35,236 bases of DNA from Fibrobacter succinogenes (GTDB lineage: Bacteria > Fibrobacterota > Fibrobacteria > Fibrobacterales > Fibrobacteraceae), in assembly GCF_902779965.1 (NCBI RefSeq), contig NZ_CACZDK010000037.1, positions 1 through 35,236 of the forward strand, given 5' to 3'. Under the pieces are notes generated by a model. It was not told the DNA's origin and made no database searches. It worked only from the letters and a program-made list of their open reading frames with translations. Below, piece after piece: positions 1,383 to 31,836 of this stretch. The first letter of the stretch is position 1. The number at the start of each line of letters is the position of its first letter. The position numbers and the translations under genes were made by a program.

Positions 1383-1835
1383 TTAGAACTGTTCAATCTG
1401 GGTGTTGAACTTGTATTTGTCCTTGTAATAGGCGAGCATTTCGTCGCTGTTGGAGAATGCGCGGCGCAGCGGATCGCGGAGGGCCGGTTCTCTCTTGACC
1501 TTCTTGTTGATTTCAGGAACTACGTCCTTGAAGAAAAGTTCGTTGCTAGCCATGGCAACATGATTCTGGTTGAAGTCCATGTGATAACGGCGTTCGACCA
1601 TCTGGAACAAGTCAGACTGGCAGGAATTTTCGGGCGGCATGTGGCTTGCGACAGGCATATAGCACTGCTTGATGTAGTCTTGCTTCATGCTAACGATGAG
1701 GCTGTCAATGGCGGGAATGTTGTGTACCGAGTCTTGATGATAAGCAAGTTCGGCCTTTGGGGTTACGACTCCAGAGCATGCTGAGAAGAATGCTGCGGCG
1801 AGTGCGAGGGAAGCCCAAATGATTGAATGTTTCAT
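1383..1835 (-). CDS. Small lipoprotein of unknown function
   Basis: A 150-residue protein with a lysine-bearing start, a hydrophobic stretch (IIWASLALAAAFF) and a lipobox FSAC at residues 17-20, so Cys20 is the likely lipidated residue. The mature part is hydrophilic, with two further cysteines (in KQCYMP and NSCQSD) that could form a disulfide in the periplasm. I recognise no family. A good ribosome binding site (AAGGATTAGGA) precedes the ATG, and an intrinsic terminator follows the stop, so it is probably monocistronic. A TAACTTTG box about 55 bases upstream of the ATG could be its promoter. Confidence 0.85.
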   Translation of the reverse strand: MKHSIIWASLALAAAFFSACSGVVTPKAELAYHQDSVHNIPAIDSLIVSMKQDYIKQCYMPVASHMPPENSCQSDLFQMVERRYHMDFNQNHVAMASNELFFKDVVPEINKKVKREPALRDPLRRAFSNSDEMLAYYKDKYKFNTQIEQF

Positions 1836-2014: not shown

Positions 2015-3526
2015 TTATTTCGAGGTTGGCTTGAATTTATAAAACCATTTGATGGGGTCGATGACGTCGTAACGGACGTTGCCGATGCGTTTTTGCCCTT
2101 TTTTGCTCACGAGTCCTGTAACGATGTGGGCGTGCGGGCCTGTGGTGTGTCCTGTGGTGCCAACGGTTGCAATCGGGTCGCCGGGCATCACTTCTTGACC
2201 GTTGAGATAAAGTAATTTATCGCAGTGCATGAACAAAATAACATCTTCTTTACGAACAAGTGCTATGATGACACCGCCGCGTTCATCGCGGCTGGTCCAG
2301 GCCTTGGCGCCGAACGGTGCTAGAATGCGGGCGCCTTGACGGCTTGCAACGTCGATGCCGTTGTGTTTACGTTGTGTGGGTGTTGCTTTTTCATGATAAA
2401 ATTCCGTGATGTAGGCGATGCTGTCCGAAATCACAGATGTCCAGTATTTCCATGCGGCGCCAATTGTATCTGCAGAGGCTGGGCGCTTGATCTCGTCCGG
2501 ACGCGAGAAGCGGATTGTTGTCCCTTTGGGTGGAATGTTGAGGTTCCCTTTTTCCCATGAGGTCACGCCAAAACCGTTATCTTCGAGCGTCTTGGCGACG
2601 TAATTCTTGATCATCTTCTCGTTGGTGATGATTGCGTCAAAACGTCCGATGGCGTAACGTGCAATGCGTTGCATGGTTTCAACGCCGTCGAATGTGTATT
2701 CGAAGGAGGGCGCAACGGAGAGCTGGTTTCGTTCCTGGATGCGGTCGCGGATGTTGGAATCGCTCCTGTCGATGTCTGTGACGAAGAGAAATGGCGCAAC
2801 AATGACGAAAAGGAGCAGTAACGGGAAGAAATTGCGGATAATTCTCGGGAATCCGTCCAGAGGGTTCTTGGTGAGGATTGAGACTTTGTGGATTTTTTTC
2901 GCGATTCGGGCGAATTCTTCCGGCTGTTCCTTAAAACTTAATTTTGAAACGTTTACACTACGGCGAACGGCTTTGCGTGCCTTTGGGTAGCTGCGGCGGA
3001 TTGGGCGTTCTTTCGAAAGCCACAACAGTTCGATTTTCTGAGCTTCTTTTACGTCTTCGATGAATGCGGCAGCCGTTCTTGCGGACATCCCGGTGACATT
3101 CACGATTAAAAGACGAGCCATCGAAATTAGATTTCCGACATTTTCGACTTGTTCAAGCGAAATGATGCCGATGACTTGCGGGGCAATCTTTTCGAGGCGC
3201 TTGATGTTGTGGTAAAGCGTTCGGTATTCTGCATCCGTTGTCGGGATAGCTTTGGGGCCCGCAAACGTGACGCTTTCACCGGCGGTATAAATCTGGTCTA
3301 TATCGTCGGTGGTGAGGTTTCTTTGCGAAAGGTCGATTGCCTGGAAGGGGGCGTTGCCTGTTAATGGGCGTTTCCCCGAAAAGTCAATTACAACAAAACG
3401 CGCACCGGCGTTAAGTGCCAGTGCGAATTTGTGCAAGGCTTCTGTGGGTAAAACGTCTTCGTCAGAGATGGCGAAAAGCGTGAACCCGCCTTGGTTGTAA
3501 AGGTTTTCTAGGACCTTTCTCTGCAT
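2015..3526 (-). CDS. Membrane-anchored M23 (LytM-type) metallopeptidase with cytoplasmic N-terminal domain
   Basis: A 503-residue protein. Residues 1-180 resemble an alpha/beta domain of the ParA/MinD/BY-kinase kind (VVIDFSG, VIGIISLEQVENV, LLIVNVTGMSA) but have no P-loop. Residues 180-230 are basic, 232-250 are a single transmembrane helix (FFPLLLLFVIVAPFLFV), and the rest is periplasmic. The C-terminal peptidase has the zinc and catalytic motifs H388-N-G-I-D392, H434 in FMHCDKL, and H465-A-H467 in GPHAHI, so it should be an active zinc endopeptidase cutting peptidoglycan cross-bridges. It follows the 135-residue gene with three bases between stop and start, so the two are surely co-transcribed. 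The fusion suggests cytoplasmic control of wall cleavage; that is inference. The peptidase call is secure; the N-terminal fold is tentative. Confidence 0.9.
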   Translation of the reverse strand: MQRKVLENLYNQGGFTLFAISDEDVLPTEALHKFALALNAGARFVVIDFSGKRPLTGNAPFQAIDLSQRNLTTDDIDQIYTAGESVTFAGPKAIPTTDAEYRTLYHNIKRLEKIAPQVIGIISLEQVENVGNLISMARLLIVNVTGMSARTAAAFIEDVKEAQKIELLWLSKERPIRRSYPKARKAVRRSVNVSKLSFKEQPEEFARIAKKIHKVSILTKNPLDGFPRIIRNFFPLLLLFVIVAPFLFVTDIDRSDSNIRDRIQERNQLSVAPSFEYTFDGVETMQRIARYAIGRFDAIITNEKMIKNYVAKTLEDNGFGVTSWEKGNLNIPPKGTTIRFSRPDEIKRPASADTIGAAWKYWTSVISDSIAYITEFYHEKATPTQRKHNGIDVASRQGARILAPFGAKAWTSRDERGGVIIALVRKEDVILFMHCDKLLYLNGQEVMPGDPIATVGTTGHTTGPHAHIVTGLVSKKGQKRIGNVRYDVIDPIKWFYKFKPTSK

Positions 3527-3529
3527 GCC

Positions 3530-3937
3530 TTACTTGGCGGCACCGCGCGGGTAGGAGTAGCCAGAAGGAGGAGCGGCGACGAACTTGTCAACCTGGAGGT
3601 AAAGTTCTTCAGCGGATGCGGCCGGGTTGAAGAAAATTTCCTGATTGCGGTTCTGGCTGCGGCCCTTGATGGGTTCGTTGCGGCGGCCACGGCTAACAAT
3701 GCCGAGCGGGAGCACTTCCAAGAGCGGCAAAAGGCCGAAGTAGCGGAAAAGGCTGAAGTTCTTCTGCCATGTGGTGCGTTCTGCCAAAATTGCAAAGGTC
3801 CCTTCAATGATGGACTTGCTCTGGAGAAGGTCTTCAGAAGTCATCGTCACGAGTTCGTGATTGGTGGGGAAGTTGTTCTGGAAGTTTACCATGTCGCCTT
3901 TGAGATAGTTGGCGTCACAAAGGAATACGAATTTCAT
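3530..3937 (-). CDS. Small Rossmann-like hypothetical protein co-transcribed with the M23 peptidase
   Basis: A 135-residue soluble protein without a signal peptide. Its pattern of MKFVFLCDANYLKGD, HELVTMTSEDLL, GTFAILAE and a C-terminal AEELYLQVDKFVA alternates strands and helices like a receiver (CheY-like) or similar flavodoxin fold, but I cannot place it in a family. A CAGGAAAAA ribosome binding site precedes the ATG. The peptidase gene starts three bases after its stop, so the pair forms an operon. A role as cytoplasmic partner of the N-terminal domain of the peptidase is plausible from context only. Confidence 0.8.
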   Translation of the reverse strand: MKFVFLCDANYLKGDMVNFQNNFPTNHELVTMTSEDLLQSKSIIEGTFAILAERTTWQKNFSLFRYFGLLPLLEVLPLGIVSRGRRNEPIKGRSQNRNQEIFFNPAASAEELYLQVDKFVAAPPSGYSYPRGAAK

Positions 3938-4372
3938 TGTTTTTCCTGGTTAGATTTGGTTTATTTTTAAATAATAGTTTTTTTTGTCGAATTTTGCCAT
4001 AATTTGAGGGGTGTTTGCTGGCTATGAATTCCCCAAAATCGGCTCTTTTACAAAAATTTTACATTCAACAGTGGCACTTTTGGGTGTTTAAAGTGTTTAT
4101 ACCTTTATTTCCAAGCTTCAATTGCGTTTATTGGGCGAAAAGAGAGAGCCTTAGCTTTGTGTTAAGTGCATTTCGTAAGTCGTTGATTTTTCGTAAGTTA
4201 TGCAAATTGGGAAAATTTGCTGGACAAATGTGTCGTTTTTTGTTATGAAAAAACATTAATGGCGATTGAGAAAATATTTATGAAATGCGTTATATTTATA
4301 GACGTTTTTAAGGACGTTTTGAAAAATTTCATTGGGAAATTTTGATTGCGTGTATGGTATCGGAGATTGAAA
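3938..4372. other. Divergent intergenic region, AT-rich, no gene
   Basis: About 435 bases lie between two divergent transcription units. The 77-codon open frame at 4015-4248 has no ribosome binding site and no recognisable product, so I do not call it a gene. Near the right end TATATTTA (about 4288) is a possible -7 box for the giant gene. A direct repeat of GACGTTTT follows, and an 8-bp hairpin (AAAATTTC at 4323-4330 with GAAATTTT at 4336-4343) lies just before the ribosome binding site. The hairpin falls in the presumed 5' leader and could affect translation or stability. Confidence 0.5.
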
Positions 4373-7300
4373 ATGAATAAGTTGAAGATGTCTATGGCGA
4401 CCTTGCTTGCTTCGGCGAGCGTGATAGCAACATCATCGTTTGCACAAAATCCAGCACCTGCGGCACCTGCTCCACAGCCGGCTCCAGCCCCAGCTGCGCC
4501 TGTGAATGAGCCTGCTCCCGAACCCGCACCGGCGGTTGCAAATGAAGCTCCTCAGATTGGTGGAATTCCTGGCGAATCTATTTTGGAAGGTGGTGTTTTT
4601 TCGAAGATTAAACTCGACAATTTTGTAACGGACGATATGGATCAGCCTTCGCAGATTCGTTGGAAGGCGAGTGGCAATAAGAACCTCAGGGTGACGATTA
4701 CTCCGGACCATACGGTTGAAATTGTAACGCCAAATCCTCTTTGGAACGGCTCTGAAGATATCACTTTTACAGCAACAGACTCTAGGGGCGCTTCGGCTTC
4801 TGAAACGGTGAACTTTACGGTTGAATCTGTGAATAATCCGCCGGTGGTGTCGCAAATCCCGAGCCAGGTTATTGAAGAAGGCAAGCTGTTTGCAAAGGTT
4901 CGCTTGGACGATTTTGTAAATGACCCGGACCACAAAAAAGACCAGATTACGTGGGATACCGAAATTGTTCCGGCTGGCGGTCCTCAGGCTGATGGTGATT
5001 TGTCTGTAACGATTGACGGAAACCGCGTGGCAACGATTGTGGTTCCCGATAAGCACTGGTATGGCGCCGCTCGAATCAAGTTCATCGCCAATGACCCGGA
5101 TTACGGTAGCGATAACAAGACGGCTGCCTTTACGGTCTCGCCGATTAACGATCCTCCGGTATTTACAAAGAAGATCCCTGACCAGATTATCGACGAAAAG
5201 AATCAGTTCGACATGATTTCGCTTGTAGATTATGTCAATGACCCCGATGATGACGTCATGAAACTCAAGTGGGCCGTGTCGGGCAACAAGGATTTGAAGA
5301 TTGAACTCGACAAGTACGGTTCTGCGATTGTGACCATTCCGAACGAGTATTGGAACGGTCAGGAACGCGTAACGTTTATCGTGACCGACGCAGCGGGCGC
5401 TTCTGCAAAGCAGGATGTTTTGTTCAAGGTCAATTCTCAGAATGATGCTCCTGAATTTATCCAAAATATCCCGGACCAGACGATTGATGAAAAGCAAGAA
5501 TTTGCTCCGATTCAGTTGGGCCAGTATGTCAAGGATCCGGACCACCGCATCGAAATGCTCAAGTGGGCTGTTTCTGGTGCAAAGGACCTGAAGGTTTCTG
5601 TTTCTGGCGGTGTTGCGACAATTCGCATTCCGAACAAAATGTGGAATGGCTCAGAATCCATCAAGTTCAAGGCTACGGACCCGGAAGGCGCTTCTGCTGA
5701 AAGCGAAGCCATGTTTACGGTCAATTCTGTCAATGACTTGCCGAAGTTCATTCGTCCGATTCCGAACCAGAACATCAACGAAAAGCAACAGTTCACCAAG
5801 ATCAAGCTTGATGACTTTGTCAAGGATGAAGACCACAAGAATTCTGAACTTTCTTGGGATGTCGAAGTCAAGCACCAGGGCCAAATGCCGGAAACGGGAA
5901 CGCTCAATGTCTCTATCGACGAACAGCATGTGGCAACGGTTGAAATCCCGGACCCGAGCTGGTTTGGCAATACGATTGCAACGTTCACTGTGATGGACCC
6001 GGAAGGCGGTTCTGCTAAGCAGGATGTCGCTTTGAACGTTCGCTCTGTGAACGACCCACCGATTTTCAAGAAAATTGCTGACCAGACGATTGACGAAAAG
6101 AATGAATTTTCTTCGTTTATCTTGGACGATTACTTGAGCGATGCCGACCACGACTTCTCCAAGCTCAAAGTTGAAGTGACTGGCAATCGCGATCTCAAGG
6201 TCAATATCGACAACAGGTCCCACGAAGTTTCCGTGAAGATTCCGCACGAACAGTGGAATGGTTCTGAAACTTTGACCTTTACGGCAACAGACCCGGAAGG
6301 CGCTCGTGCAACGACGAATGCGAAGTTCACGGTAAAGGCTATTAACGATCCTCCGGTCATGAGGGATATCCGCGAACAGACCATCAAGGAAAAAGGCGAA
6401 TTCCAGCCGGTTGAACTGGATAACTATGTTGAAGATCCGGATCATGCCAAGAATCGCCTCAAGTGGACGATTACAGGCAACAAGGAACTCAAGGTTGCTG
6501 TAGATGGTGGCCATAATGCCCGTATCACTCCGCCGTCTGCACAGTGGCATGGTGCCGAAGCTATTACGTTCAAGGTTTGTGACCCGGACAATGCTTGCGA
6601 CGAACGCACGGTCAACTTTACGGTTGAATCTGTGAACGATTTGCCGGTGTTTGTAAGACAAGTTATGCCGCAGTCCATTCGCGAAAAGGGCCAGTTCCAG
6701 CCGATCAAGCTTGGCGACATGGTAAAGGATATGGATAACAAGCTCTCTGAACTTACGTTTGCCGTTTCTTCGAAGCCGGCCGCGGGTTCCAAGAAAAGAG
6801 AATCTGAGCTGAAGGTCAATATCGATGCGAACAAGGTGGCAACGATTGTCATCCCGAACAAGTACTGGAATGGCGCCGAAGAAATCACGTTCACCGTAAC
6901 GGACCCGGAAGGCGCTAAGGCTACTTCGTCGGCTCTCTTTACAGTAGAATCTGTGAACGACCTTCCGGAAATCAAGCAGGTTGCAGACCAGACTATTCAA
7001 GAAAAGGGTGAATTCAAGCCGTTCAATGTTTCTGAACTCATTTCGGACCCGGATGACCGCTTTGAAGATTTGAAGGTGGACTTCACTGGCAATAAGGACC
7101 TCAAGGTTGAAATGTCCAAGACGGGCATGGTGACGGTGAAGACGCCGAACAAGATGTGGAACGGTGCTGAAAAGATTACGTTCACGGTGACAGATGCTGC
7201 TGGCGCCAAGGCTCGTACGACGGCAACATTCACGGTTGTTTCTGTGAACGATCCGCCAATCATGAAGGAAATTGCAAGCCAGACTGTTAAGGAAAAAGAA

Positions 7301-10300
7301 TCGTTCAAGCCGATTGAACTTGACAATTTTGTTGAAGACCTTGACCATGCCAAGAATCGCCTTAAGTGGAAGTTCGAAGGCAACAAGGATCTCCGCATTT
7401 CTATGGACCCGACGCACAAGGTGACGGTTACTCCGCCGAACGTGAGCTGGAATGGTTCCGAAAAGATTCGCTTTACCGTAACGGACCCGGATGGCGCCTC
7501 GGATAGCAAGGAAGTGACATTTACCGTTCTTTCTGTGAACGATGCTCCTGAATTTGTACGCGATTTGCGCGACCAGTCCATTGACGAAAAGAAACAGTTC
7601 CAGCCGATTAAGCTTGCGGACTTTGTCAAGGACCCGGACCACAAGATTAGCGAACTCAAGTGGACATTCAAGGTTAGCCCGATTAGCCAGGGCTCTAAGA
7701 AAAAGGGCAAAGACGATGGTGAAGAAACTTCGGGCCTTCGCGTAACTGTCGATGCCGCTGGCGTTGCTACGGTGAACATCCCGAACAAGTACTGGCACGG
7801 TGCTGCAAACATCACGTTTACGGCTACGGACCCGGAAGGTGCTTCTGCAAGCAAGACTGCTCGCTTTGAAGTGCGCTCCGTGAACGATGCTCCGGTGATT
7901 GCTGCAACAGCACCGACTGGCGAAACGATTCTCGAAGGTGGCCGTTTCAAGACGATTGATCTTTCGACTCTCGCTGATGACCCGGACCACCCGGCCTCTT
8001 CGCTCAAGTGGGAAGTTTCTGGCAATAGAGACCTCAAGGTGGACATCCGCAAGGATAACACTGTGATTATTTCTGTTCCGGATAAGCAGTGGAGCGGCAA
8101 GGAAAACATGACGTTCTCCGTGACGGACCCAGAAGGCGCTTATGCCCGCCACAAGATGCTCTTTGAAGTCACTCGCGTGAACGATCCTCCTGCATTTGTA
8201 AAGCGCATTCCTGACCAGAAGATCAAGGAAAAGGAAACGTTCAAGCAGATTAAGCTCGATGAATTTGTGAAGGACCCGGATAACAAGCCGAATGAACTTC
8301 GCTGGAAGATTACGGGTGCAAAGCAACTCAAGGCCGAAATTTCTCCGAGCCGCGTTCTTACCGTTACTGCTCCCAATAAGGATTTCTGGTGTGCTCCTGA
8401 AATGATGATTCTCGAAGTGAGCGACCCGGATGGTGCAAAGACTTCGCAGTCCATCACGTTCGAAATTACTTCTGTGAACGATCCTCCGGTTTTGAGAGAT
8501 ATTCCGCCGCAGAGAATCCGCGAAAAGGGCCAGTTCAAGGATATTGACTTGAGCAAGCTTGTCCGCGACCCGGATAATGCCTTGGATCAGCTTTCTTGGT
8601 CTGTCAAGGTCAACAAACCAGAATCTGAAGCCAAGAAGAGCAAGAAGGGCAAAAAAGGCAAGAAGGATGATGACGATGAAGACGAACCTGTTGTAAAGGA
8701 TCCGTTTAGCGTTGTTATTTACAAGGGTGGTCTCGCTCATATTGAAATTGCCGATAAGTACTGGCATGGCGAACGCAATGTTATGTTCACCGTGAAGGAC
8801 CCGGATGGTGCAACGGATTCCAAGACTGTTAATTTTGTTGTGGAATCTGTGAACGATGCTCCGGCAATTAGACCGATTCTTGCTCAGACAATCAAGGAAA
8901 AGGAACAGTTTGAACCGATCGACTTGACGAAGTTCGTGTCGGATTCGGATCATCCGTTGAGCTCCCTCAAGTTCGAAATTGCTCCGACTCGCGCGCTCAA
9001 GGCTTCGATTAATGCTAAAAAGCAGCTTGTTGTTTCGACTCCGGACAAGTACTGGAGTGGCTCTGAAAAGATTCGCCTTGATGTGACGGACCCGGAAGGT
9101 GCAAGAGCTTCTCAGCAGATTGAATTCAGTGTGACTCCGGTGAACGACCCGCCGGTGATTGTGAAGGATATTCCTGGCCAAAAGATCAAGGAAAAGGAAA
9201 GATTCACGATGGTGGACTTGACCCAGATCGTTAAGGATCCGGACAACAAGCCTAATGAACTCAAGTGGTCTGTAGCTGGAAATAACGAACTCACTGTGGA
9301 TATCAAGAATGGACGTGCAACAGTGACTACGCCGAATCCGAACTGGTTCGGTAAGGAAACGCTCACGTTTACGGTCATGGACCCGGCTGGTGATAAGCAG
9401 TCTACCAAGGCTACATTCGAAGTGGTTCCGGTGAACGACCCGCCGAAGTTTAAACCAGTTCCGCCGCAAGTCATTGAAGAAAAGAAGACGTTCCCGGCTA
9501 TCGACTTGGCTAAGTTTGTGACGGACCCGGATAACTCCCTTGCTGAACTCAAGTGGTCCATTGATGGTGAAAATCCGTTTGCTTCTTCTGCTTCGACAAA
9601 GTCCCACAAGAAGGACAAGAAAAAAGACAAGAAGAAAAAGAAGCATGTTGAAGAAGAACCTGCTCCGAAGTTCGGAAAGCATGAACTCAAGTACAATATT
9701 AGTGACAGGGGTATTCTCACGGTTGAAATCCCGGACAAGTATTGGAATGGCACAGAAACGATAACTGTCAACGTGTATGACCCGAGCAAGGAAAAGGCTT
9801 CTACAGAAATTCGCTTTACGGTGAAGTCTGTGAACGACGTTCCGGTTGTGAAGGAAATTCCGGGACAGACGACTCTTGAAGGCAAGGCTTTCAAGTCTAT
9901 CAATCTTGATGACTATGTAACAGATCCGGACCACAAGAAGAGCGAAATCAGATGGACCGTTTCTGGCGCTAAGAACCTCGATGTGAGAATCAACGGTTCT
10001 CATGTGGCTGAAATCAAGCCGAGAAGAGATAACTGGTTTGGTGACGAAACGATTATCTTTACGGCTACTGACCCGGCTGGCGGTACGGACAAGTCTGTTG
10101 TCAAGTTCTTTGTGAAGCATGTGAATGCACCTCCGGTCATGCGCGACATTCCTGACTTTACCATCAGGGAAAACCAGAATGAAGGCGTGATTGCTACGAT
10201 TAAGCTCGACCAGTATGCCCGCGATAAGGATCACAACTTCGATGACCTCAAGTGGAAATTTACGGGTCAAAAGCAGTTGCAGGTGACTTACGACAAGGCT

Positions 10301-10765
10301 AAGAAGACTGTGATCGTGGCCCAGCCGTACTCTCATTGGAAGGGTAAGCCGGAACGCATTACGTTTACGGTGACGGACCCGGATGGTGGTACGGCTCACA
10401 AGACCGCAACGTTTACGGTGATTGCCGTGAATAATCCGCCTGAAGCGAAGCCGCTCTCTTACCAGACTCGCGAAGGCGAAGTGCTTAAGGTTCCGGCATT
10501 GTCAGGCCTTATGTCTGCTGCTAAGGACCCGGATGGCGACAAGCTTGAAGCTGTGAAGGTTGTGATGAAACCGCGCAACGGTCGAATCGTCTTGAACGAA
10601 AAGAATGGTTCCTTCGAATACACCCCGAATAAGGGCTTCTCTGGAATCGATGAATTTACGTACAAGGTGTTTGACCCGTCTGGCCTTGGCTCCAAGGTGA
10701 CGAATGTTGAAATCAACGTTTCGTTCAAGCCGAAGGATGTTCGTGGCAACGCTAAGAAAAAGTAA
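4373..10765 (+). CDS. Giant exported cadherin-like tandem-repeat protein
   Basis: A 2130-residue protein. I place the start at ATG 4373, with CGGAG seven bases upstream, rather than the in-frame TTG at 4346. Residues 1-24 are a signal peptide ending SSFA. A Pro/Ala-rich linker (to about 60) follows, able to span peptidoglycan. Then come 19 units of about 95-130 residues, each starting VND-PP and carrying an EK-F-LDDFV-DPDH-LKW core, WNG-E-ITFTVTDPEGA and FTV-SVND. A 20th, different domain (YQTREGEV, then GFSGIDEFTYKVFDPSG) is of the bacterial Ig/cadherin tandem type, and the tail is basic. The DPD and DPEGA acids suggest calcium binding, as in cadherin and VCBS repeats. There are only three cysteines in the repeats. 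Units 2, 5, 8, 11, 14 and 17 hold an extra loop, Lys/Asp-rich in the later ones. No lipobox, sortase or type IX sorting tail is evident, so its anchoring is unknown. Adhesion or an envelope scaffold is likely. Confidence 0.92.
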   Translation: MNKLKMSMATLLASASVIATSSFAQNPAPAAPAPQPAPAPAAPVNEPAPEPAPAVANEAPQIGGIPGESILEGGVFSKIKLDNFVTDDMDQPSQIRWKASGNKNLRVTITPDHTVEIVTPNPLWNGSEDITFTATDSRGASASETVNFTVESVNNPPVVSQIPSQVIEEGKLFAKVRLDDFVNDPDHKKDQITWDTEIVPAGGPQADGDLSVTIDGNRVATIVVPDKHWYGAARIKFIANDPDYGSDNKTAAFTVSPINDPPVFTKKIPDQIIDEKNQFDMISLVDYVNDPDDDVMKLKWAVSGNKDLKIELDKYGSAIVTIPNEYWNGQERVTFIVTDAAGASAKQDVLFKVNSQNDAPEFIQNIPDQTIDEKQEFAPIQLGQYVKDPDHRIEMLKWAVSGAKDLKVSVSGGVATIRIPNKMWNGSESIKFKATDPEGASAESEAMFTVNSVNDLPKFIRPIPNQNINEKQQFTKIKLDDFVKDEDHKNSELSWDVEVKHQGQMPETGTLNVSIDEQHVATVEIPDPSWFGNTIATFTVMDPEGGSAKQDVALNVRSVNDPPIFKKIADQTIDEKNEFSSFILDDYLSDADHDFSKLKVEVTGNRDLKVNIDNRSHEVSVKIPHEQWNGSETLTFTATDPEGARATTNAKFTVKAINDPPVMRDIREQTIKEKGEFQPVELDNYVEDPDHAKNRLKWTITGNKELKVAVDGGHNARITPPSAQWHGAEAITFKVCDPDNACDERTVNFTVESVNDLPVFVRQVMPQSIREKGQFQPIKLGDMVKDMDNKLSELTFAVSSKPAAGSKKRESELKVNIDANKVATIVIPNKYWNGAEEITFTVTDPEGAKATSSALFTVESVNDLPEIKQVADQTIQEKGEFKPFNVSELISDPDDRFEDLKVDFTGNKDLKVEMSKTGMVTVKTPNKMWNGAEKITFTVTDAAGAKARTTATFTVVSVNDPPIMKEIASQTVKEKESFKPIELDNFVEDLDHAKNRLKWKFEGNKDLRISMDPTHKVTVTPPNVSWNGSEKIRFTVTDPDGASDSKEVTFTVLSVNDAPEFVRDLRDQSIDEKKQFQPIKLADFVKDPDHKISELKWTFKVSPISQGSKKKGKDDGEETSGLRVTVDAAGVATVNIPNKYWHGAANITFTATDPEGASASKTARFEVRSVNDAPVIAATAPTGETILEGGRFKTIDLSTLADDPDHPASSLKWEVSGNRDLKVDIRKDNTVIISVPDKQWSGKENMTFSVTDPEGAYARHKMLFEVTRVNDPPAFVKRIPDQKIKEKETFKQIKLDEFVKDPDNKPNELRWKITGAKQLKAEISPSRVLTVTAPNKDFWCAPEMMILEVSDPDGAKTSQSITFEITSVNDPPVLRDIPPQRIREKGQFKDIDLSKLVRDPDNALDQLSWSVKVNKPESEAKKSKKGKKGKKDDDDEDEPVVKDPFSVVIYKGGLAHIEIADKYWHGERNVMFTVKDPDGATDSKTVNFVVESVNDAPAIRPILAQTIKEKEQFEPIDLTKFVSDSDHPLSSLKFEIAPTRALKASINAKKQLVVSTPDKYWSGSEKIRLDVTDPEGARASQQIEFSVTPVNDPPVIVKDIPGQKIKEKERFTMVDLTQIVKDPDNKPNELKWSVAGNNELTVDIKNGRATVTTPNPNWFGKETLTFTVMDPAGDKQSTKATFEVVPVNDPPKFKPVPPQVIEEKKTFPAIDLAKFVTDPDNSLAELKWSIDGENPFASSASTKSHKKDKKKDKKKKKHVEEEPAPKFGKHELKYNISDRGILTVEIPDKYWNGTETITVNVYDPSKEKASTEIRFTVKSVNDVPVVKEIPGQTTLEGKAFKSINLDDYVTDPDHKKSEIRWTVSGAKNLDVRINGSHVAEIKPRRDNWFGDETIIFTATDPAGGTDKSVVKFFVKHVNAPPVMRDIPDFTIRENQNEGVIATIKLDQYARDKDHNFDDLKWKFTGQKQLQVTYDKAKKTVIVAQPYSHWKGKPERITFTVTDPDGGTAHKTATFTVIAVNNPPEAKPLSYQTREGEVLKVPALSGLMSAAKDPDGDKLEAVKVVMKPRNGRIVLNEKNGSFEYTPNKGFSGIDEFTYKVFDPSGLGSKVTNVEINVSFKPKDVRGNAKKK

Positions 10766-13544: not shown

Positions 13545-15476
13545 ATGCATCGTTTTTATTGGTTCTTTTTTGCACTGCTACTGATTCTTGGTAGATTCAG
13601 TCTCCTTTGTTCCTTGTACTATATAAAGACGCCTTTTGGTGGTCCATTAGTTGATTCGGTCAATAAATTCATTTGGCACACGCTCTACGTAGAAGCAGGC
13701 GTTTGCATGTCCATCGCGTTCGTTTTTTATGCGATTTCGAAATTTGTTCGCGGTAAGGGAATAAAGATTTTAAAAATTGTATCGATTGTCGTAGCGGCAG
13801 TCTATCTGTTACTCAGCGGTGTTGATGATGAAATTATGCGTTGGATGGGGCAAAAGCTTTCGCTTTCTTACCTAGCCACTTATATTTTTGCTTTTACAGA
13901 CACTGAACTTGCTGCAAATATTTTTTGTGGAGATGCATCCCATTTTCTATTGACTGCTGGAATTGTTGTCGCTTTTTCCGCTGCCATTATTGTTTTATCG
14001 TACAAAATGGATTTGGCTCTATGTTGGAAAAGTCCTTTTAAAAAGAATTACATTCTTTTGTTTATCATGTTTATCCTTGCGGTTGCTGGCTGCACGTCCT
14101 TTTGGTGGTTCAATCCGCTTTCGAGGCGGCAAGTACGCATTAAACCGGTTGCTTATAGTTTTATCGATAACATTCTTGAAATAATCAGTGCAAGAAATCC
14201 ACCTGCGGATTACCGTGAAGGCATTGTTGCTCTTCGAGGAAATCCTAATCAAGAATATCCGTTCTGGAAAGAGGCTAAAAACGAGCAGGCGTCACTTGAT
14301 GCGTTCAAGTCAAAAAGCTTAGAAGACAAACCTGATATTATATTACTGACCATCGAAAGTTTGCGTGGCTGGACTAACGATATGCGTGTTGAGGAAAATT
14401 GCAAGCGTACGCCCAATCTTTGCAAATTGACAAAACAGAGCTTGTATTTTCCTTATGCCTACAGCGTCGGTTATCCGTCCATTGAAGGACTACTGGGAAT
14501 CATGGAAGGCGTTCTGAGCTTGCCCCATCACGTTCTTTTGAATAGTTATCCCAATACTCGAATGCGGTCGATTTCTGAAATTCTTAGAGATGCTGGCTAC
14601 CATACCGAAGTTCTCGTTGGTTCGGACCCTTATTTTGACAATGGTATGGTATGGTTCCAAAAATGGTTTGATTATGTGGAATATAAACCTGAAAATCATA
14701 GCGATGTTGCAATAGCCCATCGTTTCATTGAACATTACAATTCGCGTCCCAAGGATAAACCGCTCTTTTACCATTGGATGAGTTGCAGCATGCATGTCCC
14801 TTTCGATTTACCAAAAGATATGGGGGAAAAACCTAATGATATAGACTCTGCTTACATGCGTGCCGTCGTTTATATGGACAGTTCCCTTGGAATCCTTATG
14901 AATGAAATTGAGCGGAGCGATAGGGCGAAAAATACTTTGCTAATTCTTACCGGAGACCATTCGATTGGTAATAGCAAGCAAATGTCTACTGTTGAAAATG
15001 TGGGGCAGGCCGCTGACGCTTTCACGTGGGTTTCGCTCCTGTTTTGGGGGCTTGGCGTTGAACCGCGTATAGATTCACGTCCCGTTTCGCAGGCTGATAT
15101 TCCTCCGTCGATTATTGGGGCTTTGGGTCTTGATGTTTCCAATCATTTTGTGGGAACTAACTTGCTCCAATGCCGTGATTCGTCTTGCACTATGGATTTG
15201 CCGCCTGTCTATTCTCTCCGTGGGGGCAGTATAGGACTTCGAACAGATTCACTCACTTTTTTGCTTCCGAATGTTGAAGGGGCTGATCCGGCTATTGTCT
15301 TGAAAAAAGAGCATGAGCCGACTTGGAATACGTCTGAACCTGTAGAAGGCTATATAAACGAGGAACCATTCGAGATTGATCGAGAAAATCTCCTCAAGAC
15401 AACGGCAACCATGCGGGCGGTATCCAATGCATGGAAATATGTTGTTTATAAGAATAAACTTATGCCACAGAGATAA
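13545..15476 (+). CDS. LtaS/OpgB-like phosphoglycerol transferase, copy 1
   Basis: A 643-residue membrane enzyme of the LTA synthase family (sulfatase/alkaline phosphatase fold). Five N-terminal transmembrane helices lie near 4-25, 47-67, 74-92, 133-153 and 168-187, followed by an extracytoplasmic catalytic domain. The metal and catalytic positions are visible: E271 in LLTIESLRGW, the nucleophile position in SVGYPS312IEGLLG, H417 in SMHVPF, and D471-H472 in LTGDHS. The nucleophile position holds Ser, where LtaS enzymes have Thr. A Gram-negative cell lacks classical lipoteichoic acid, so a phosphoglycerol or related headgroup is probably moved from a phospholipid to a periplasmic glycan or lipid; the acceptor is unknown. 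An AAGGA site precedes the ATG. The second copy starts 15 bases after this stop. Confidence 0.88.
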   Translation: MHRFYWFFFALLLILGRFSLLCSLYYIKTPFGGPLVDSVNKFIWHTLYVEAGVCMSIAFVFYAISKFVRGKGIKILKIVSIVVAAVYLLLSGVDDEIMRWMGQKLSLSYLATYIFAFTDTELAANIFCGDASHFLLTAGIVVAFSAAIIVLSYKMDLALCWKSPFKKNYILLFIMFILAVAGCTSFWWFNPLSRRQVRIKPVAYSFIDNILEIISARNPPADYREGIVALRGNPNQEYPFWKEAKNEQASLDAFKSKSLEDKPDIILLTIESLRGWTNDMRVEENCKRTPNLCKLTKQSLYFPYAYSVGYPSIEGLLGIMEGVLSLPHHVLLNSYPNTRMRSISEILRDAGYHTEVLVGSDPYFDNGMVWFQKWFDYVEYKPENHSDVAIAHRFIEHYNSRPKDKPLFYHWMSCSMHVPFDLPKDMGEKPNDIDSAYMRAVVYMDSSLGILMNEIERSDRAKNTLLILTGDHSIGNSKQMSTVENVGQAADAFTWVSLLFWGLGVEPRIDSRPVSQADIPPSIIGALGLDVSNHFVGTNLLQCRDSSCTMDLPPVYSLRGGSIGLRTDSLTFLLPNVEGADPAIVLKKEHEPTWNTSEPVEGYINEEPFEIDRENLLKTTATMRAVSNAWKYVVYKNKLMPQR

Positions 15477-15491
15477 GGTGTTGTAAAAACT

Positions 15492-17441
15492 ATGATTAAA
15501 AAAATTTTAAGTACCCATTATTATTGGATTGCCATTTCTGCCATTTTAATAATCGGAAGAATATCTCTCCTTTGTTCTTTGTACTTTTTTAAGAATCCAT
15601 TTGGCGGTCCAGTCGTAGAAAACGTAAATAAGTTCTTATGGCATTCTATTTACGTAGAATCTGGGGTCGTCATGGCTTTGATGACTTGCTTTATTCTGGC
15701 GTCTTTTTGGATTCGCGGTAAAGGGTTGACCGTCTTAAAAGCGTTTATTGTAATTCTTGGTTCTCTATATGTTATTACATCTGGTATTGATGACGAAGTC
15801 CAACGTTGGATGTTTCAAAAATTTACGCCTTCTTTTATTAGTGTTTATTTAACGGCATTTGCTGACACGTCTATTGTTTTAGATGTTTTTTCGGGAGATG
15901 CGTTTCATTTTATTCTGACCATTGTTCTTTGCACATTGTTCAGTGCTTTGCTTGCTATAGTTACGGTCAAGGCGGATTTCCGTCAAATTATGCAAAGACC
16001 TCTTAAGAAAAATCAGTTAATGGTTTTCGCCATTTCATTTCTTTTGGCTGTTGTCGGCTGTACATCTTTTTGGTGGTTTAATCCGTTGCCGCGAAGACAG
16101 GTTCGCATTAAGCCTGTCTTTTATTCATTTGTAAGTGAATTTATCAGCACTCTTGATGCTCGGCATGCTCCTGAAAATTATCGCGAAGGCGTTATTGCTC
16201 TTGGCGGGAATCCCGATGCTGAATACCCATTTTGGAAAAATGCAGAAAACGAAACTCAGTCTCTTGAAAACTTTAAATTAAAATCTCTTGACGAAAAACC
16301 GGATATTATTTTGTTCACTATCGAAAGTTTGCGCGGTTGGACAAGCGATATGCGCATCGGTTCCAGTTGCAAGACTTTTCCTCATTTGTGCAAGCTTGCT
16401 CTCGAAGGTCTTTATTTCCCTAACACGCATAGCGTGGGAGCCCCTTCCATCGAAGGTTTGCTCGGAATCATGGAAGGCATCCTAAGTCATCCTTATGTCG
16501 TGTTTTTAAACAATTATCCTACGACACGGATGAGGTCGTTACCTGAAATTTTGCGTGATGCTGGCTACCACACGGAAGTTTTGATGGGGACTGATCCCAG
16601 ATTTGCTAACGAAGAAGTTTGGTTTAAGCAGTGGTTTGATTATGTAGAATTTATTGACAATAGTAATGATGTCACGCTTGCAAATCGTTTCATTGAACAT
16701 TACAAGGAACGACCTGAAGGTAAGCCGTTGTTCTATCATTGGATGAGCCGCAGTATGCACGTTCCCTTCAAACTGCCTAAAGATATGGGGCCCACTCCGG
16801 ATGACCCTGCTGTAGCTTACATGCGAGCCGCTGTTTACATGGATAGCGCTCTTGGTATTATTATGAATGCTGTTGAAAACGGTCCAAGGGCGAATAATAC
16901 TTTGTTTGTCTTGACGGGCGATCACTCTTTCCCGACAGGTAAACAAGCCCACCTCGCAGAAAAGCTTGGAAAAATCAATGATGGTCACTCTTGGATTTCA
17001 CTCCTATTTAAGGGTCCAAACATAAAGCCCCAGCTGGCAACTCAGCAAGTATCGCAAGCGGACATAGCTTCTTCTATTCTCGGCTATCTCAATTTAGATG
17101 TGTCGAATCATTTTATGGGAATAGATTTGCTAAGTGAACGTGACAGTCTTTCGACAAAGAAATTGCCTTCCGTGTTTTCCTTTGAGTATGGCGATATGGG
17201 AATGTGGGTAGATTCCATGACCTATTATCTTTCTCCTATACAAGGGAACAATCAAGCCGTTGCTTTAAAGACGTACTTGGAACCCGCTTGGGATACAACG
17301 CAGTTGGTCGATGGATTTGTTCAGGCGGCTCCTACCGAAATTTCGGCAGAAGAATTGGAGGCAAAGACAAAAACGATGCGTGCCGTTGCCAATGCTTGGA
17401 AGTATCTGATATATAAAAACAAGCTCAGACCGCCTAAGTAA
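15492..17441 (+). CDS. LtaS/OpgB-like phosphoglycerol transferase, copy 2
   Basis: A 649-residue tandem paralogue of the preceding gene with the same layout: five N-terminal helices, then the catalytic domain with LFTIESLRGW, SVGAPSIEGLLG (Ser again at the nucleophile position), SRSMHVPF and LTGDHSF. The two copies align end to end, including the shared VGCTSFWWFNPL before the catalytic domain and the closing AVANAWKYLIYKNKL. They have diverged along the whole length, so the duplication is not recent. The only ribosome-binding candidate is AAGG in the stop region of copy 1, so translation may be coupled. Different acceptors or growth conditions for the two enzymes are plausible but not shown. 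Confidence 0.88.
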   Translation: MIKKILSTHYYWIAISAILIIGRISLLCSLYFFKNPFGGPVVENVNKFLWHSIYVESGVVMALMTCFILASFWIRGKGLTVLKAFIVILGSLYVITSGIDDEVQRWMFQKFTPSFISVYLTAFADTSIVLDVFSGDAFHFILTIVLCTLFSALLAIVTVKADFRQIMQRPLKKNQLMVFAISFLLAVVGCTSFWWFNPLPRRQVRIKPVFYSFVSEFISTLDARHAPENYREGVIALGGNPDAEYPFWKNAENETQSLENFKLKSLDEKPDIILFTIESLRGWTSDMRIGSSCKTFPHLCKLALEGLYFPNTHSVGAPSIEGLLGIMEGILSHPYVVFLNNYPTTRMRSLPEILRDAGYHTEVLMGTDPRFANEEVWFKQWFDYVEFIDNSNDVTLANRFIEHYKERPEGKPLFYHWMSRSMHVPFKLPKDMGPTPDDPAVAYMRAAVYMDSALGIIMNAVENGPRANNTLFVLTGDHSFPTGKQAHLAEKLGKINDGHSWISLLFKGPNIKPQLATQQVSQADIASSILGYLNLDVSNHFMGIDLLSERDSLSTKKLPSVFSFEYGDMGMWVDSMTYYLSPIQGNNQAVALKTYLEPAWDTTQLVDGFVQAAPTEISAEELEAKTKTMRAVANAWKYLIYKNKLRPPK

Positions 17442-19189: not shown

Positions 19190-19641
19190 AGTAAACAGTG
19201 GTTAGTGGTTAGTAAACAGGAATGCATAAAGGAATGCAATGGCTCAAAGCTATAAAGATTTGGTAGTCTGGCAAAAAGCGATTGATCTGACCGTTGCGGT
19301 TTATCAATTGACGAAACAGTTTCCTAAAGAGGAATTGTTTGGACTAGTATCCCAAATGCGGCGAGCTTCTGTTTCTATAGCCAGTAATATTGCAGAAGGT
19401 GAAGGACGCAAGTCTAAAAAAGAGTTTGCTCATTTTTTAGGCATTTCCCTTGGATCAAAGGCTGAGTTAGAAACTCAATTGCTTTTGTGTGAGCGTGTTG
19501 GTTTAGCTAGTTCATCTGCAGTTTCTGAAATAAGAGATTCGTTGGATGAAATCGGAAAGATGCTTGCCATCTTAAAAATGCGACAAGACTCTCGTATTGT
19601 GATAAAACATCCCAACCACTAACCACCAACCACTAACCACT
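19190..19641. mobile_element. Putative element: four-helix-bundle gene between inverted heptad arrays (element D)
   Basis: The left arm at 19190-19217 is AGTAAAC, AGTGGTT, AGTGGTT, AGTAAAC. The right arm at 19614-19641 is AACCACT, AACCACC, AACCACT, AACCACT. AGTGGTT is the exact reverse complement of AACCACT, so the arms are terminal inverted repeats built of 7-mers. The only gene inside is the four-helix-bundle gene, and its last three codons and stop are encoded by the right arm. A near-identical left arm (AGTGGCT, AGTAAAC repeated, then AGG) without a gene occurs at 21744-21774. Mobility is inferred from this structure; no transposase is present. Confidence 0.6.
19239..19622 (+). CDS. Four-helix-bundle protein of the 23S rRNA intervening-sequence (S23/IVP, TIGR02436) family
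   Basis: 127 residues matching the family along its length: YKDLVVWQKAIDLTVAVY, then FPKEELFGLVSQMRRASVSI, ASNIAEGEGR, EFAHFLGISLGSKAELETQL. Members lie within 23S rRNA intervening sequences in Leptospira and Coxiella, are scattered as single genes in many genomes, and share their fold with the Avd protein of diversity-generating retroelements, a basic pentamer that binds nucleic acid. The biochemical role of the free-standing members is unknown. An AAGGA site lies five bases before the ATG. Its C-terminal PNH and stop codon are written by the first heptads of the right repeat arm. It sits between lysS and the Lol permease gene, unrelated in function to either. Confidence 0.9.
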   Translation: MAQSYKDLVVWQKAIDLTVAVYQLTKQFPKEELFGLVSQMRRASVSIASNIAEGEGRKSKKEFAHFLGISLGSKAELETQLLLCERVGLASSSAVSEIRDSLDEIGKMLAILKMRQDSRIVIKHPNH

Positions 19642-25547: not shown

Positions 25548-27560
25548 ATGAGATTGATGATGTGTATGGATTCGTGGAAAACGCGGGGCTTAAATGTTCT
25601 TATCGTGCTGTTGCTGGCATTGACGTTTGTCGCATGTAATGAAGATAAGAATGAATTCTTTGATGAATCTCAATTAATGATAACGGTGCAGTTCGATAAT
25701 AGGGTGGTTGAAAAAAAAGAAGAGAAAAAGTCCCTTTACAAATCAAAGAAAAGTTCTTGGGGAAATAAAAGATCTTGTACAGGTTTCCCCAAAAAAATAG
25801 CGTATTTTTCTACGAAAAACTCCATTGGAGATACTTTAAATTTTACTCCCGAAGAAAAATTAAAGAATTACCAAAAAAGTTTCAAAATTTGGAGCGGCGC
25901 TTATAGGCTTAAATCAAAAAAATCCAGTTCGGATAGATCATCTGTTAATCAAGATACATCTTTCCTTAAGTTGAATGACAATTTTAAGATTCCGTATGTC
26001 GGAAGAAATCTGAATGTTGGTGGGGAAGAATATAGTGCTTCAGAACTTGTTGAAACGATAAAAGTTTTTAATGAAAAATTGCTTGGTGTAATCCAAGAGA
26101 ATATGACTGGACCTTGGAATTCTATAAAGCTTGATTTGACTGAATTAAGGAAAACAGTAAAAAATTTGACTGTTACTGAGAAGTCCCAGAAAAAAATGAA
26201 TGTTAACGATTTCTTTTATGAGATAGATGTCAAGGTTAAAAAAATATGTAGTGAGTGCTATTCAAAAACATTCGACCTGCTTAATTTGAATGAAAATTTA
26301 AAAGAAGTTAAATTATCGACATATGATGTTTTGCTTGTAGATTTTTATCCCAAAGTAAAAAAACAAAAAGTTCATTTTGATAATCATGAAATAGAATCGA
26401 AAATTGAAGTAGCTGTTTCGACAAAAGCTAGAGTTTATCAAGAAGGATATCATTTTATCCTTTCGTCCAATGTCATGGAAATTTTGGTTGATGTTTTGGG
26501 TGTTACACCGAAGAATACTAAAAATATGCGACTTTGCGTAAAAGATGATTATTTGAAAATTTTAATAACAAGTGAAGGAATAACAGATAATGTTGTTGTA
26601 AATAGTTTTAATCAATCAACGGAGATTATTTCTATAATCAAAGGTGATGCGAAGGATAGTGTGAATGATTATTTTCAAAATTATTATTTAAAATTCAATG
26701 ATGGTTTAAATGTTCTAGATTCGATAAAAATTCCTTTCTTGAATAAACTGTTTTTCTCTGTTAATCAAAAAAATCTTAGTATAAAGAGTGTTCTTGAGTC
26801 TATTGAAAATTACAGTAGACTTCTTCAATTTTATGTGGATTCTAATTTAGATGTAAAAGGAACGGGTGACGGTGGAATACTTAATTTAAAAGGAGTAGGG
26901 AAAATGTTGAGGTTGTACTATGACAGAAATATTCCGTTACGTAATGCCGCTATGTGTAACAAATCTTTTGATTACTTATTTCTTCCCTACAATAAAAGGA
27001 ATTTTATTGATTTAACGAAACCGATAGAGAAAAAGTATCGTAAAATGAAACTCCCCGAAAATGAAAATGTTTTGGTGTATCGAATTACACCAGCATTATT
27101 ACGATACAATCAGATTGTTGATTTTGGATTGTTGAAAGTTCAAAATTTTACGGTTGATTTTGAAACCTATGTAAAGCAGGCTTTTTATATAGCTGGTGAT
27201 TTTGTGATTGGTGAAGACTGTTACCTTGATGACGTTGATTTAAAATTATCTGCACGCGTGAATGAAATAAAACTTGGTGATAAAAAAATTTTATTTGAAA
27301 ATGGTAGGCTTAATTATTTGATAAATATGCATATGATATATGAGGGCTTAAAGAATATTGTTATGACTCTACCATCGTTTTTGAATTTAGATTACGAATC
27401 CTTGACGATTATGGATGGCGATAGGATTGTAGCGACTGTGAATAACCAGAATCATAAAGAACGTTTTAGCTATGATTTTAATATTGACAAATGGATGATT
27501 CCAAGTTCCTTGAAACCGTATGTAACGTTGCCTAAACGTAATATGAAATTTGACGAGTAA
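25548..27560 (+). CDS. Large AT-rich lipoprotein, tandem copy 1
   Basis: A 670-residue predicted lipoprotein of unknown family. A signal with KTR before a hydrophobic core ends in the lipobox FVAC, putting the lipidated Cys at residue 30. Recognisable blocks are the early FTPEEKLKNYQKSFKIWSGA then YRLKSKK, a mostly beta-predicted middle, and the C-terminal LNLDYESLTIMDGDRIVAT, SYDF and MIPSSLKPYV. A GAGG site lies eight bases before the ATG. ATGAGGATTGGAAAATGA, a five-codon frame (MRIGK), overlaps the start by ATGA. Composition is far richer in A/T (AAA, AAT, ATA codons) than the housekeeping genes here, suggesting transfer or relaxed codon use. The paralogue begins 22 bases after the stop, so the two form an operon. 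The function is unknown; a surface or periplasmic location is likely. Confidence 0.85.
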   Translation: MRLMMCMDSWKTRGLNVLIVLLLALTFVACNEDKNEFFDESQLMITVQFDNRVVEKKEEKKSLYKSKKSSWGNKRSCTGFPKKIAYFSTKNSIGDTLNFTPEEKLKNYQKSFKIWSGAYRLKSKKSSSDRSSVNQDTSFLKLNDNFKIPYVGRNLNVGGEEYSASELVETIKVFNEKLLGVIQENMTGPWNSIKLDLTELRKTVKNLTVTEKSQKKMNVNDFFYEIDVKVKKICSECYSKTFDLLNLNENLKEVKLSTYDVLLVDFYPKVKKQKVHFDNHEIESKIEVAVSTKARVYQEGYHFILSSNVMEILVDVLGVTPKNTKNMRLCVKDDYLKILITSEGITDNVVVNSFNQSTEIISIIKGDAKDSVNDYFQNYYLKFNDGLNVLDSIKIPFLNKLFFSVNQKNLSIKSVLESIENYSRLLQFYVDSNLDVKGTGDGGILNLKGVGKMLRLYYDRNIPLRNAAMCNKSFDYLFLPYNKRNFIDLTKPIEKKYRKMKLPENENVLVYRITPALLRYNQIVDFGLLKVQNFTVDFETYVKQAFYIAGDFVIGEDCYLDDVDLKLSARVNEIKLGDKKILFENGRLNYLINMHMIYEGLKNIVMTLPSFLNLDYESLTIMDGDRIVATVNNQNHKERFSYDFNIDKWMIPSSLKPYVTLPKRNMKFDE

Positions 27561-27581
27561 TAAACTTATGAGGCTTGGAAA

Positions 27582-29573: not shown

Positions 29574-29630
29574 TGATAATATTCGTTTTGGCTGAAAAAT
29601 TTTTTTACATGTGTTTTGATTTGTTTTTTA

Positions 29631-29658
29631 TTTGGGATAATTTATATATTGTCCCAAA
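29631..29658 (+). promoter_or_regulatory. Palindromic promoter of the serine-linker lipoprotein
   Basis: TTTGGGA (29631-29637) and TCCCAAA (29652-29658) are a perfect 7-bp inverted repeat around 14 bases that contain the -7 box TATATTG (29645-29651). A TTTG at 29620-29623, 21 bases upstream of the box, fits -33. The whole dyad is 28 bp, the same overall span as the dyad in front of the regulator gene. It is a likely operator. Confidence 0.55.
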
Positions 29659-29681
29659 CTTTCAATAAAAAGGAGTTATTT

Positions 29682-31835: not shown

Positions 31836-31836
31836 T

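What the first reader, a model, noticed from the sequence alone, without database searches (positions are those of the whole stretch)
4949..9690. Every third repeat of the giant protein carries a growing, charged loop
Between the two conserved Trp positions most units have 25-27 residues. Units 2, 5, 8, 11, 14 and 17 have 34, 34, 35, 43, 54 and 62, counted by eye. The inserts sit in the same loop, about 900-950 bases apart, and change from neutral to KKKGKDD, then KKGKKGKK with DDDDEDE, then KKDKKKDKKKKK. This is a three-domain super-repeat with a graded feature along the molecule. Such loops could bind polyanions, wall polymers or neighbouring chains at about 300-residue spacing.
Basis: seen in the sequence. 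Interest (0 to 1): 0.75.

Follow-up and report, generated by a model that had tools for sequence, protein, structure and literature searches.

The report
Fibrobacter giant protein with three-domain super-repeat
A giant secreted rod protein found in every near-complete Fibrobacter genome searched has an extra loop on exactly every third of its 20-23 cadherin-like domains, and the loops get longer and change from acidic to Lys-rich along the chain, which suggests an envelope scaffold with a built-in regular spacing, although its job is untested.

Summary
The ORF at 4373-10765 (+) encodes a 2,130-residue secreted protein of Fibrobacter with 20 tandem cadherin-like (Big_9/tandem-95) units. In 69 full-length gene copies (two Fibrobacter clades, other genera of the family and a second family at about 43% identity), 466 of 466 'phase' units carry the insert and 997 of 1,001 other units have exactly 7 residues there. 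Unit number changes only by three: 23 in most, 20 in the window's clade, which lost one triplet and kept the phase. The inserts are the disordered stretches in an AlphaFold model, all between strands C and C'. Loop charge runs from acidic to basic in all groups, and the chain ends in a basic tail. Corrections: the first loops are acidic, not neutral; strictly increasing length fails in the 23-unit clade; the Asp/Glu runs are specific to the window clade. Best mechanism: a fixed-length envelope rod whose basic distal loops dock on an anionic partner. This is inferred; no function is demonstrated.

The parts
4373..10765 (+). Giant secreted protein gene, 2,130 aa from the ATG at 4373 (the listed ORF opens at TTG 4346); predicted signal peptide MNKLKMSMATLLASASVIATSSFAQ, Pro/Ala-rich N-terminal spacer, 20 cadherin-like units, basic C-terminal tail
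   Evidence: ATG preceded by ggag; signal peptide and spacer read by eye; orthologues
4541..10762 (+). Array of 20 cadherin-like units (Big_9 / Cadherin_5 / tandem-95)
4832..5146 (+). Unit 2, insert loop of 15 residues (DTEIVPAGGPQADGD), acidic, net -4
5732..6049 (+). Unit 5, insert loop of 15 residues (DVEVKHQGQMPETGT), net -2
6635..6955 (+). Unit 8, insert loop of 16 residues (AVSSKPAAGSKKRESE), net +2
7538..7882 (+). Unit 11, insert loop of 24 residues (TFKVSPISQGSKKKGKDDGEETSG), net +1
8477..8851 (+). Unit 14, insert loop of 35 residues (contains KKSKKGKKGKKDDDDEDE), net +1, disordered in the model
9434..9832 (+). Unit 17, insert loop of 43 residues (contains HKKDKKKDKKKKK), net +5, disordered in the model
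10430..10762 (+). Terminal unit 20 and basic tail (...KDVRGNAKKK; a long Lys-rich tail in the 23-unit clade)
2015..3526 (-). Divergent neighbour: M23-family peptidase with a predicted membrane segment; kept beside the giant gene in the family
   Evidence: Pfam M23; membrane segment read from sequence
3530..3937 (-). 135-aa conserved protein of unknown family, between the M23 gene and the giant gene wherever that order is kept
1383..1835 (-). 150-aa probable lipoprotein (lipobox-like SACSG read by eye), next to the M23 gene

Best explanation
The gene encodes a core, single-copy, fixed-length envelope rod of Fibrobacteraceae made of probably calcium-linked cadherin-like domains. Its working unit is a three-domain super-repeat: two plain domains and one domain in which the tight C-C' turn (consensus xVSGNKD) is replaced by an extended, protruding arm. 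SHOWN: the period of three, its conservation, the step of exactly one super-repeat between clades, the single structural site (in a predicted fold), and the N-acidic to C-basic gradient ending in a basic tail. INFERRED: consecutive domains are twisted by about a third of a turn, so the arms point to one side about every 13 nm; the basic, flexible distal arms and tail dock the C-terminal half on an anionic envelope partner (peptidoglycan, lipopolysaccharide or another acidic polymer or protein), while the acidic proximal half stays free or points away. The protein would act as a spacer or scaffold of set length rather than as a variable adhesin.
For: Phase lock in 466/466 phase units, with 997/1001 other units exactly 7 residues (table). 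The 20-unit clade equals the 23-unit form minus one triplet (units 1-8 match 1-8, units 9-20 match 12-23), and no other unit count was seen apart from terminal units below threshold. Same-phase units are more alike outside the loop (lag-3 identity 0.47-0.53 against about 0.42-0.47 at lags 1-2; permutation p 0.0001-0.006). Loop net charge rises from acidic to basic in all four groups; body charge also rises (rho 0.76, p 0.0002 in the window protein; 0.41-0.75 in the others); the tail is basic in all ten proteins printed. Strong matches in all 43 Fibrobacter genomes at least 90% complete. Inserts are the disordered stretches between strands C and C'. Fold matches are cadherins and the calcium-linked AhLap adhesin rod. 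E16, D31, W68 and D80 are invariant in all 19 units and D33 nearly so. Calcium-linked Ig-like rods are known with twists of about i+2, i+3 or i+4 (PMC7493085). Conserved neighbours include an M23 peptidase gene.
Against: No experiment or paper found that deals with this protein. Inter-domain orientation is not confidently predicted (pTM 0.32 and 0.45), so facing of the loops is not shown; the lowest-rmsd four-domain match, AhLap, has an i+2 rather than i+3 rotation. Neither location (periplasm or surface) nor calcium binding was tested. Lengths and letters of the long loops drift freely, as expected of weakly constrained linkers. In the second family the gene sits elsewhere (after lysS, FtsX-type and ABC genes), so the M23 link is not universal. 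In the divergent genus g25 (L097) the charge gradient is weak.
Confidence: 0.4

Rival explanations
1. Chain-to-chain zipper: acidic proximal arms and bodies of one molecule pair with basic distal arms of another (antiparallel or staggered), building a bundle or lattice in the envelope.
For: Opposite charges at the two ends at matching ~300-residue spacing in all groups; domain bodies are acidic while distal loops are basic; regular spacing suits registered lateral packing.
Against: The Asp/Glu runs that would pair with Lys runs are specific to the window clade; the 15-residue proximal loops are short compared with the distal ones; no assembly data.
Confidence: 0.2
2. Fibre adhesin: a rigid surface rod carrying the cell's attachment to plant fibre, the loops being binding or spacing elements.
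For: Fibrobacter attaches to cellulose; cadherin-domain proteins are reported in its envelope proteome (PMC4619616), though those are different proteins (FSU_2931 and FSU_2932) by mass and pI; fold matches include a calcium-linked adhesin rod.
Against: No carbohydrate-binding module, RTX repeats or recognised surface anchor in the Pfam and NCBIfam scans; unit number is fixed within clades, unlike typical variable adhesin arrays; Lys-rich arms are not known cellulose binders.
Confidence: 0.18
3. Historical by-product: the array grew by copying three-domain blocks in which one domain happened to have a longer turn, and the later loops expanded by slippage in Lys/Gly/Ala/Pro codons because the site tolerates it.
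For: Same-phase similarity and phase clustering of central units show triplet copying; distal loops are low-complexity and vary in length between species.
Against: The phase persists without a single loss in 69 gene copies down to about 43% identity; units 2 and 5 keep 14-17 residues and stay acidic (unit 5 at most net 0); distal loops stay net positive or at least neutral in spite of sequence turnover; other units keep exactly 7 residues in 997/1001 cases; the same graded charge recurs in a second family.
Confidence: 0.2

Closest known systems
Titin A-band super-repeats (7- and 11-domain patterns of Ig/Fn domains)
   Same: A higher-order repeat of domains with a fixed register; loss of whole super-repeats shortens the molecule in set steps (PMC5648799), as the natural triplet loss does here.
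   Different: Bacterial, cadherin-like domains only, period of three, mark is an insert loop rather than a change of domain type, charge gradient along the chain; no partner filament known. An analogy only, not homology.
Calcium-linked Ig-like extender regions of RTX adhesins (MhLap, AhLap, MpIBP)
   Same: Tandem beta-sandwich domains forming a rod with a regular twist (i+2 to i+4; PMC7493085); AhLap 6xi1 is the lowest-rmsd four-domain match (Z 12.5, rmsd 6.8 over 369).
   Different: Those are secreted by type I systems with RTX repeats and have long arrays of repeats; no every-third insert was found described for them; none of their terminal modules was found here.
Big_9 / Cadherin_5 / tandem-95 repeat proteins
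   Same: Sequence family of the units (Pfam Big_9 2e-148; NCBIfam tand_rpt_95 531 bits against a 90 cut-off).
   Different: Ten other candidates from the same phylum, spaced with the same unit model, show no every-third spacing where several adjacent units are resolved.
Basic terminal domain (BTD/FPm-1) of F. succinogenes glycoside hydrolases
   Same: A basic module on secreted Fibrobacter proteins (PMC3079729).
   Different: A C-terminal paralogous module on enzymes; sequence was not compared here, and the loops described are inserts inside Ig-like domains.

Membership tests
Tandem-95 / Big_9 cadherin-like repeat protein | Sequence match to the repeat family above curated cut-off | tested here: met
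   Pfam Big_9 484 bits (cut-off 23.6); NCBIfam tand_rpt_95 531.5 bits (cut-off 90)
Cadherin-like fold | Beta-sandwich matching solved cadherin domains | tested here: met
   AF2 models, pLDDT 78 and 87; cadherin EC chains lead the fold searches (Z 11-14)
Cadherin-like calcium-linked rod | Calcium-binding residues at domain junctions | tested here: inconclusive
   N1, E16, D31 and D80 invariant, D33 nearly invariant in all 19 units, as expected for such sites; binding not tested
RTX fibrillar adhesin (LapA/MpIBP type) | RTX nonapeptide repeats and type I secretion end | tested here: not met
   No such family among Pfam or NCBIfam matches; a signal-peptide-like N-terminus is present instead
RTX fibrillar adhesin (LapA/MpIBP type) | Rod of tandem Ig-like domains | tested here: met
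Type IX secretion cargo | C-terminal T9SS sorting domain | tested here: not met
   No CTD family among Pfam or NCBIfam matches of the giant protein, although a SprA_N-family homologue is encoded in the genome
Titin-like super-repeat ruler | Fixed multi-domain register conserved across orthologues, length changing by whole super-repeats | tested here: met
Titin-like super-repeat ruler | Partner polymer with matching period whose length it sets | not testable with these tools
   No partner known

The most novel reading that the evidence does not exclude
A bacterial molecular ruler or scaffold: a rod with about three domains per turn that presents one graded, electrostatically tuned arm per turn on a single face, binds a repeating anionic envelope partner in register, and is lengthened or shortened in evolution only by whole turns.
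Probability: 0.25. Interest if true: 0.78.

Novelty: new variant of a known kind. Interest (0 to 1): 0.58.

Why it matters
Giant tandem Ig-like proteins of bacteria are usually treated as uniform spacers with variable repeat number. Here the array has a second-order pattern kept without exception across a family and into another, and its length changes by whole super-repeats. It is present in every near-complete Fibrobacter genome searched, so it is probably important for the cell envelope of these major rumen cellulose degraders, yet no paper found deals with it. It gives a directly testable case of whether domain register and loop charge in a bacterial rod encode spacing, as super-repeats do in titin.

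Tried and rejected
Chance or miscounting: rejected. Inserts at different structural sites: rejected. Assembly artefact: rejected, the pattern is in 69 gene copies from separate genomes. General property of tandem Ig-like proteins of the phylum: not seen in the controls, though several controls resolved only a few units. Link with the cadherin-domain proteins FSU_2931/FSU_2932 of the S85 proteome: not the same protein by mass and pI. Guess that the 135-aa neighbour is a bactofilin: no Pfam or NCBIfam match. Inter-domain twist from structure prediction: not obtainable (pTM 0.32/0.45, no coordinates). Sequence search of the PDB with the unit profile: only marginal matches. Unit trees: phase clustering reaches p 0.03 in one of four proteins tested (others 0.11-0.35), so triplet ancestry is clear for the central units only. 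Laying the whole genome in the Python box was not available. Literature searches for every-third inserts or super-repeats in bacterial Ig arrays gave nothing relevant.
Full report
WHAT IS THERE. The ORF at 4346-10765 (+) most likely starts at the ATG at 4373, after a ggag motif, and encodes 2,130 residues (236 kDa, pI 5.4). Read by eye it has a signal-peptide-like start (MNKLKMSMATLLASASVIATSSFAQ), a Pro/Ala-rich spacer and then 20 tandem units. Pfam and NCBIfam call the units Big_9, Cadherin_5 and tandem-95. Record titles of matching contigs name Fibrobacter.

THE OBSERVATION. Splitting at the N-D-x-P junctions gives unit lengths of 97-99 for inner plain units and 105, 106, 107, 115, 125 and 133 for units 2, 5, 8, 11, 14 and 17. 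All inserts lie between the W of 'LKW' and the L of 'DLKV'. In plain units this is a seven-residue tight turn of consensus xVSGNKD, with Gly at the fourth position in nearly all; in phase units the turn is replaced by a strand-like xFDVKP start followed by the insert. In this protein alone, the chance of six inserts falling on one phase of 19 units is about 1e-4.

ORTHOLOGUES. The genome search found the protein across the genus, with a strong match in all 43 Fibrobacter genomes of at least 90% completeness in those two calls (split over contigs in one), in most other genera of the family (but not in g26, of which 12 genomes were searched) and in a second family of the order at about 43% identity. 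From the loci fetched I parsed 71 loci into units with a profile HMM and measured loops. Two of these were halves of a split gene and were left out, leaving 69 gene copies: 17 in the 20-unit clade, 39 in the 23-unit Fibrobacter clade, 11 from other genera and 2 from the second family. Every one of 466 phase units has a loop of at least 10 residues; 997 of 1,001 other units have exactly 7, the exceptions being one of 6 and one of 10 residues and unit 21 in both members of the second family. A few proteins were counted as 19 or 22 units only because the terminal unit fell below threshold; their total lengths fit 20 or 23.

EVOLUTION. Units 1-8 of the window protein match units 1-8 of the 23-unit form, and units 9-20 match 12-23. 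Since the other genera and the second family have the longer form, the window clade most likely lost one triplet, in register. Outside the loop, units three apart are more alike than other pairs (lag-3 identity 0.489, 0.532, 0.472, 0.524 in four proteins; same-phase against other-phase permutation p 0.001, 0.0001, 0.006, 0.003). FastTree groups units 7/10/13, 5/8/11/14 and 3/6/9/12 in a 23-unit protein, though label clustering over the whole tree reaches p 0.03 in only one of four proteins. So the central array grew by copying three-domain blocks, and the pattern was then kept through deep divergence.

THE GRADIENT. Mean loop lengths are 15, 15, 16, 27, 35, 44 (window clade); 15, 15, 15, 17, 32, 46, 31 (23-unit clade); 15, 15, 16, 14, 31, 36, 27 (other genera); 14, 15, 14, 19, 27, 37, 49 (second family). 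Loops 2 and 5 are nearly invariant in length; later ones are low-complexity and vary. Net charge runs -3.8, -2.0, +2.0, +1.1, +1.1, +5.2 in the window clade and from about -4 or -2 to about +3 to +5.5 in the others. The domain bodies also go from about -9 to about 0 (Spearman 0.76, p 0.0002 in the window protein; 0.41-0.49 in the two most distant proteins tested), and the ten C-termini printed are all basic. A DNA pattern coding KKGKKGKK occurs only twice in the genome, once in this gene.

STRUCTURE. AlphaFold models of units 9-17 (pLDDT 78, pTM 0.32) and 10-13 (pLDDT 87, pTM 0.45) show cadherin-like sandwiches. In the first, the long low-confidence stretches, 244-258, 556-580 and 877-907, are the three inserts (a fourth, 505-508, is four residues at a unit junction). 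Fold searches return cadherins and protocadherins and the calcium-linked AhLap adhesin rod. It is physically reasonable: PMC7493085 reports such rods with i+2, i+3 and i+4 rotations. The lowest-rmsd match here, AhLap, is the i+2 case, so this does not favour i+3.

NEIGHBOURHOOD. Divergently transcribed genes for a 135-aa protein, an M23 peptidase and a 150-aa probable lipoprotein are kept next to the giant gene in Fibrobacter and in most other genera of the family for which flanks were read; in the second family the giant gene follows lysS, an FtsX-type permease and an ABC ATPase gene, homologues of which lie a few kb downstream in the window. This points to the envelope without naming a function. 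A SprA_N-family protein is encoded in the genome, but the giant protein has no recognised T9SS sorting domain.

MECHANISM. The most likely reading is a set-length envelope rod whose super-repeat presents one arm per three domains, with basic distal arms and tail docking on an anionic partner. Fixed unit number within clades, core presence and lack of a recognised ligand-binding module argue against an ordinary variable adhesin. A zipper between chains, a fibre adhesin, and a historical by-product with slippage remain open. Pattern, conservation, site, triplet loss and charge gradient are shown; calcium binding, one-sided display, location and docking are inferred. The lengths quoted in nanometres rest on the usual size of a cadherin-type domain, about 4.5 nm (general knowledge, not measured here).

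KNOWN OR NEW. The units belong to a known family and the rod has known structural relatives. Searches of the held literature found no description of this protein or of an every-third-domain insert in a bacterial Ig array. The closest analogy for the super-repeat is titin, where removal of whole super-repeats shortens thick filaments in set steps (PMC5648799).

Noticed in passing
window 5651-10399 (-): A 1,582-aa open frame runs antisense through most of the giant gene; probably a codon-bias artefact of the repeat array.
   Followed up: no
window 13545-17441 (+): Two adjacent sulfatase-fold genes resembling lipoteichoic-acid-synthase-type phosphoglycerol transferases (weak NCBIfam matches), odd for a Gram-negative and possibly making an anionic envelope polymer near the giant gene.
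   Followed up: partly
window 25548-30815 and 31822-34245 (+): Four large genes (670, 663, 399 and 807 aa) without any Pfam match or NCBIfam match, around a DUF4423 regulator-like gene at 31008-31835.
   Followed up: no
window 19239-19622 (+): A 23S rRNA-intervening-sequence-type protein gene (Pfam PF05635) sits between lysS and an FtsX-type permease gene; no counterpart was reported between them in the second family.
   Followed up: no
window 3530-3937 (-): A 135-aa protein of no known family is 87-100% identical between distant Fibrobacter clades, far more conserved than its neighbours.
   Followed up: partly
window 4373-10765; genomes G119-G130 (genus g26): The giant gene was not found in 12 genomes of one genus of the family, only two weak N-terminal matches; several of these genomes are 90% or more complete. 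What replaces it is unknown.
   Followed up: no
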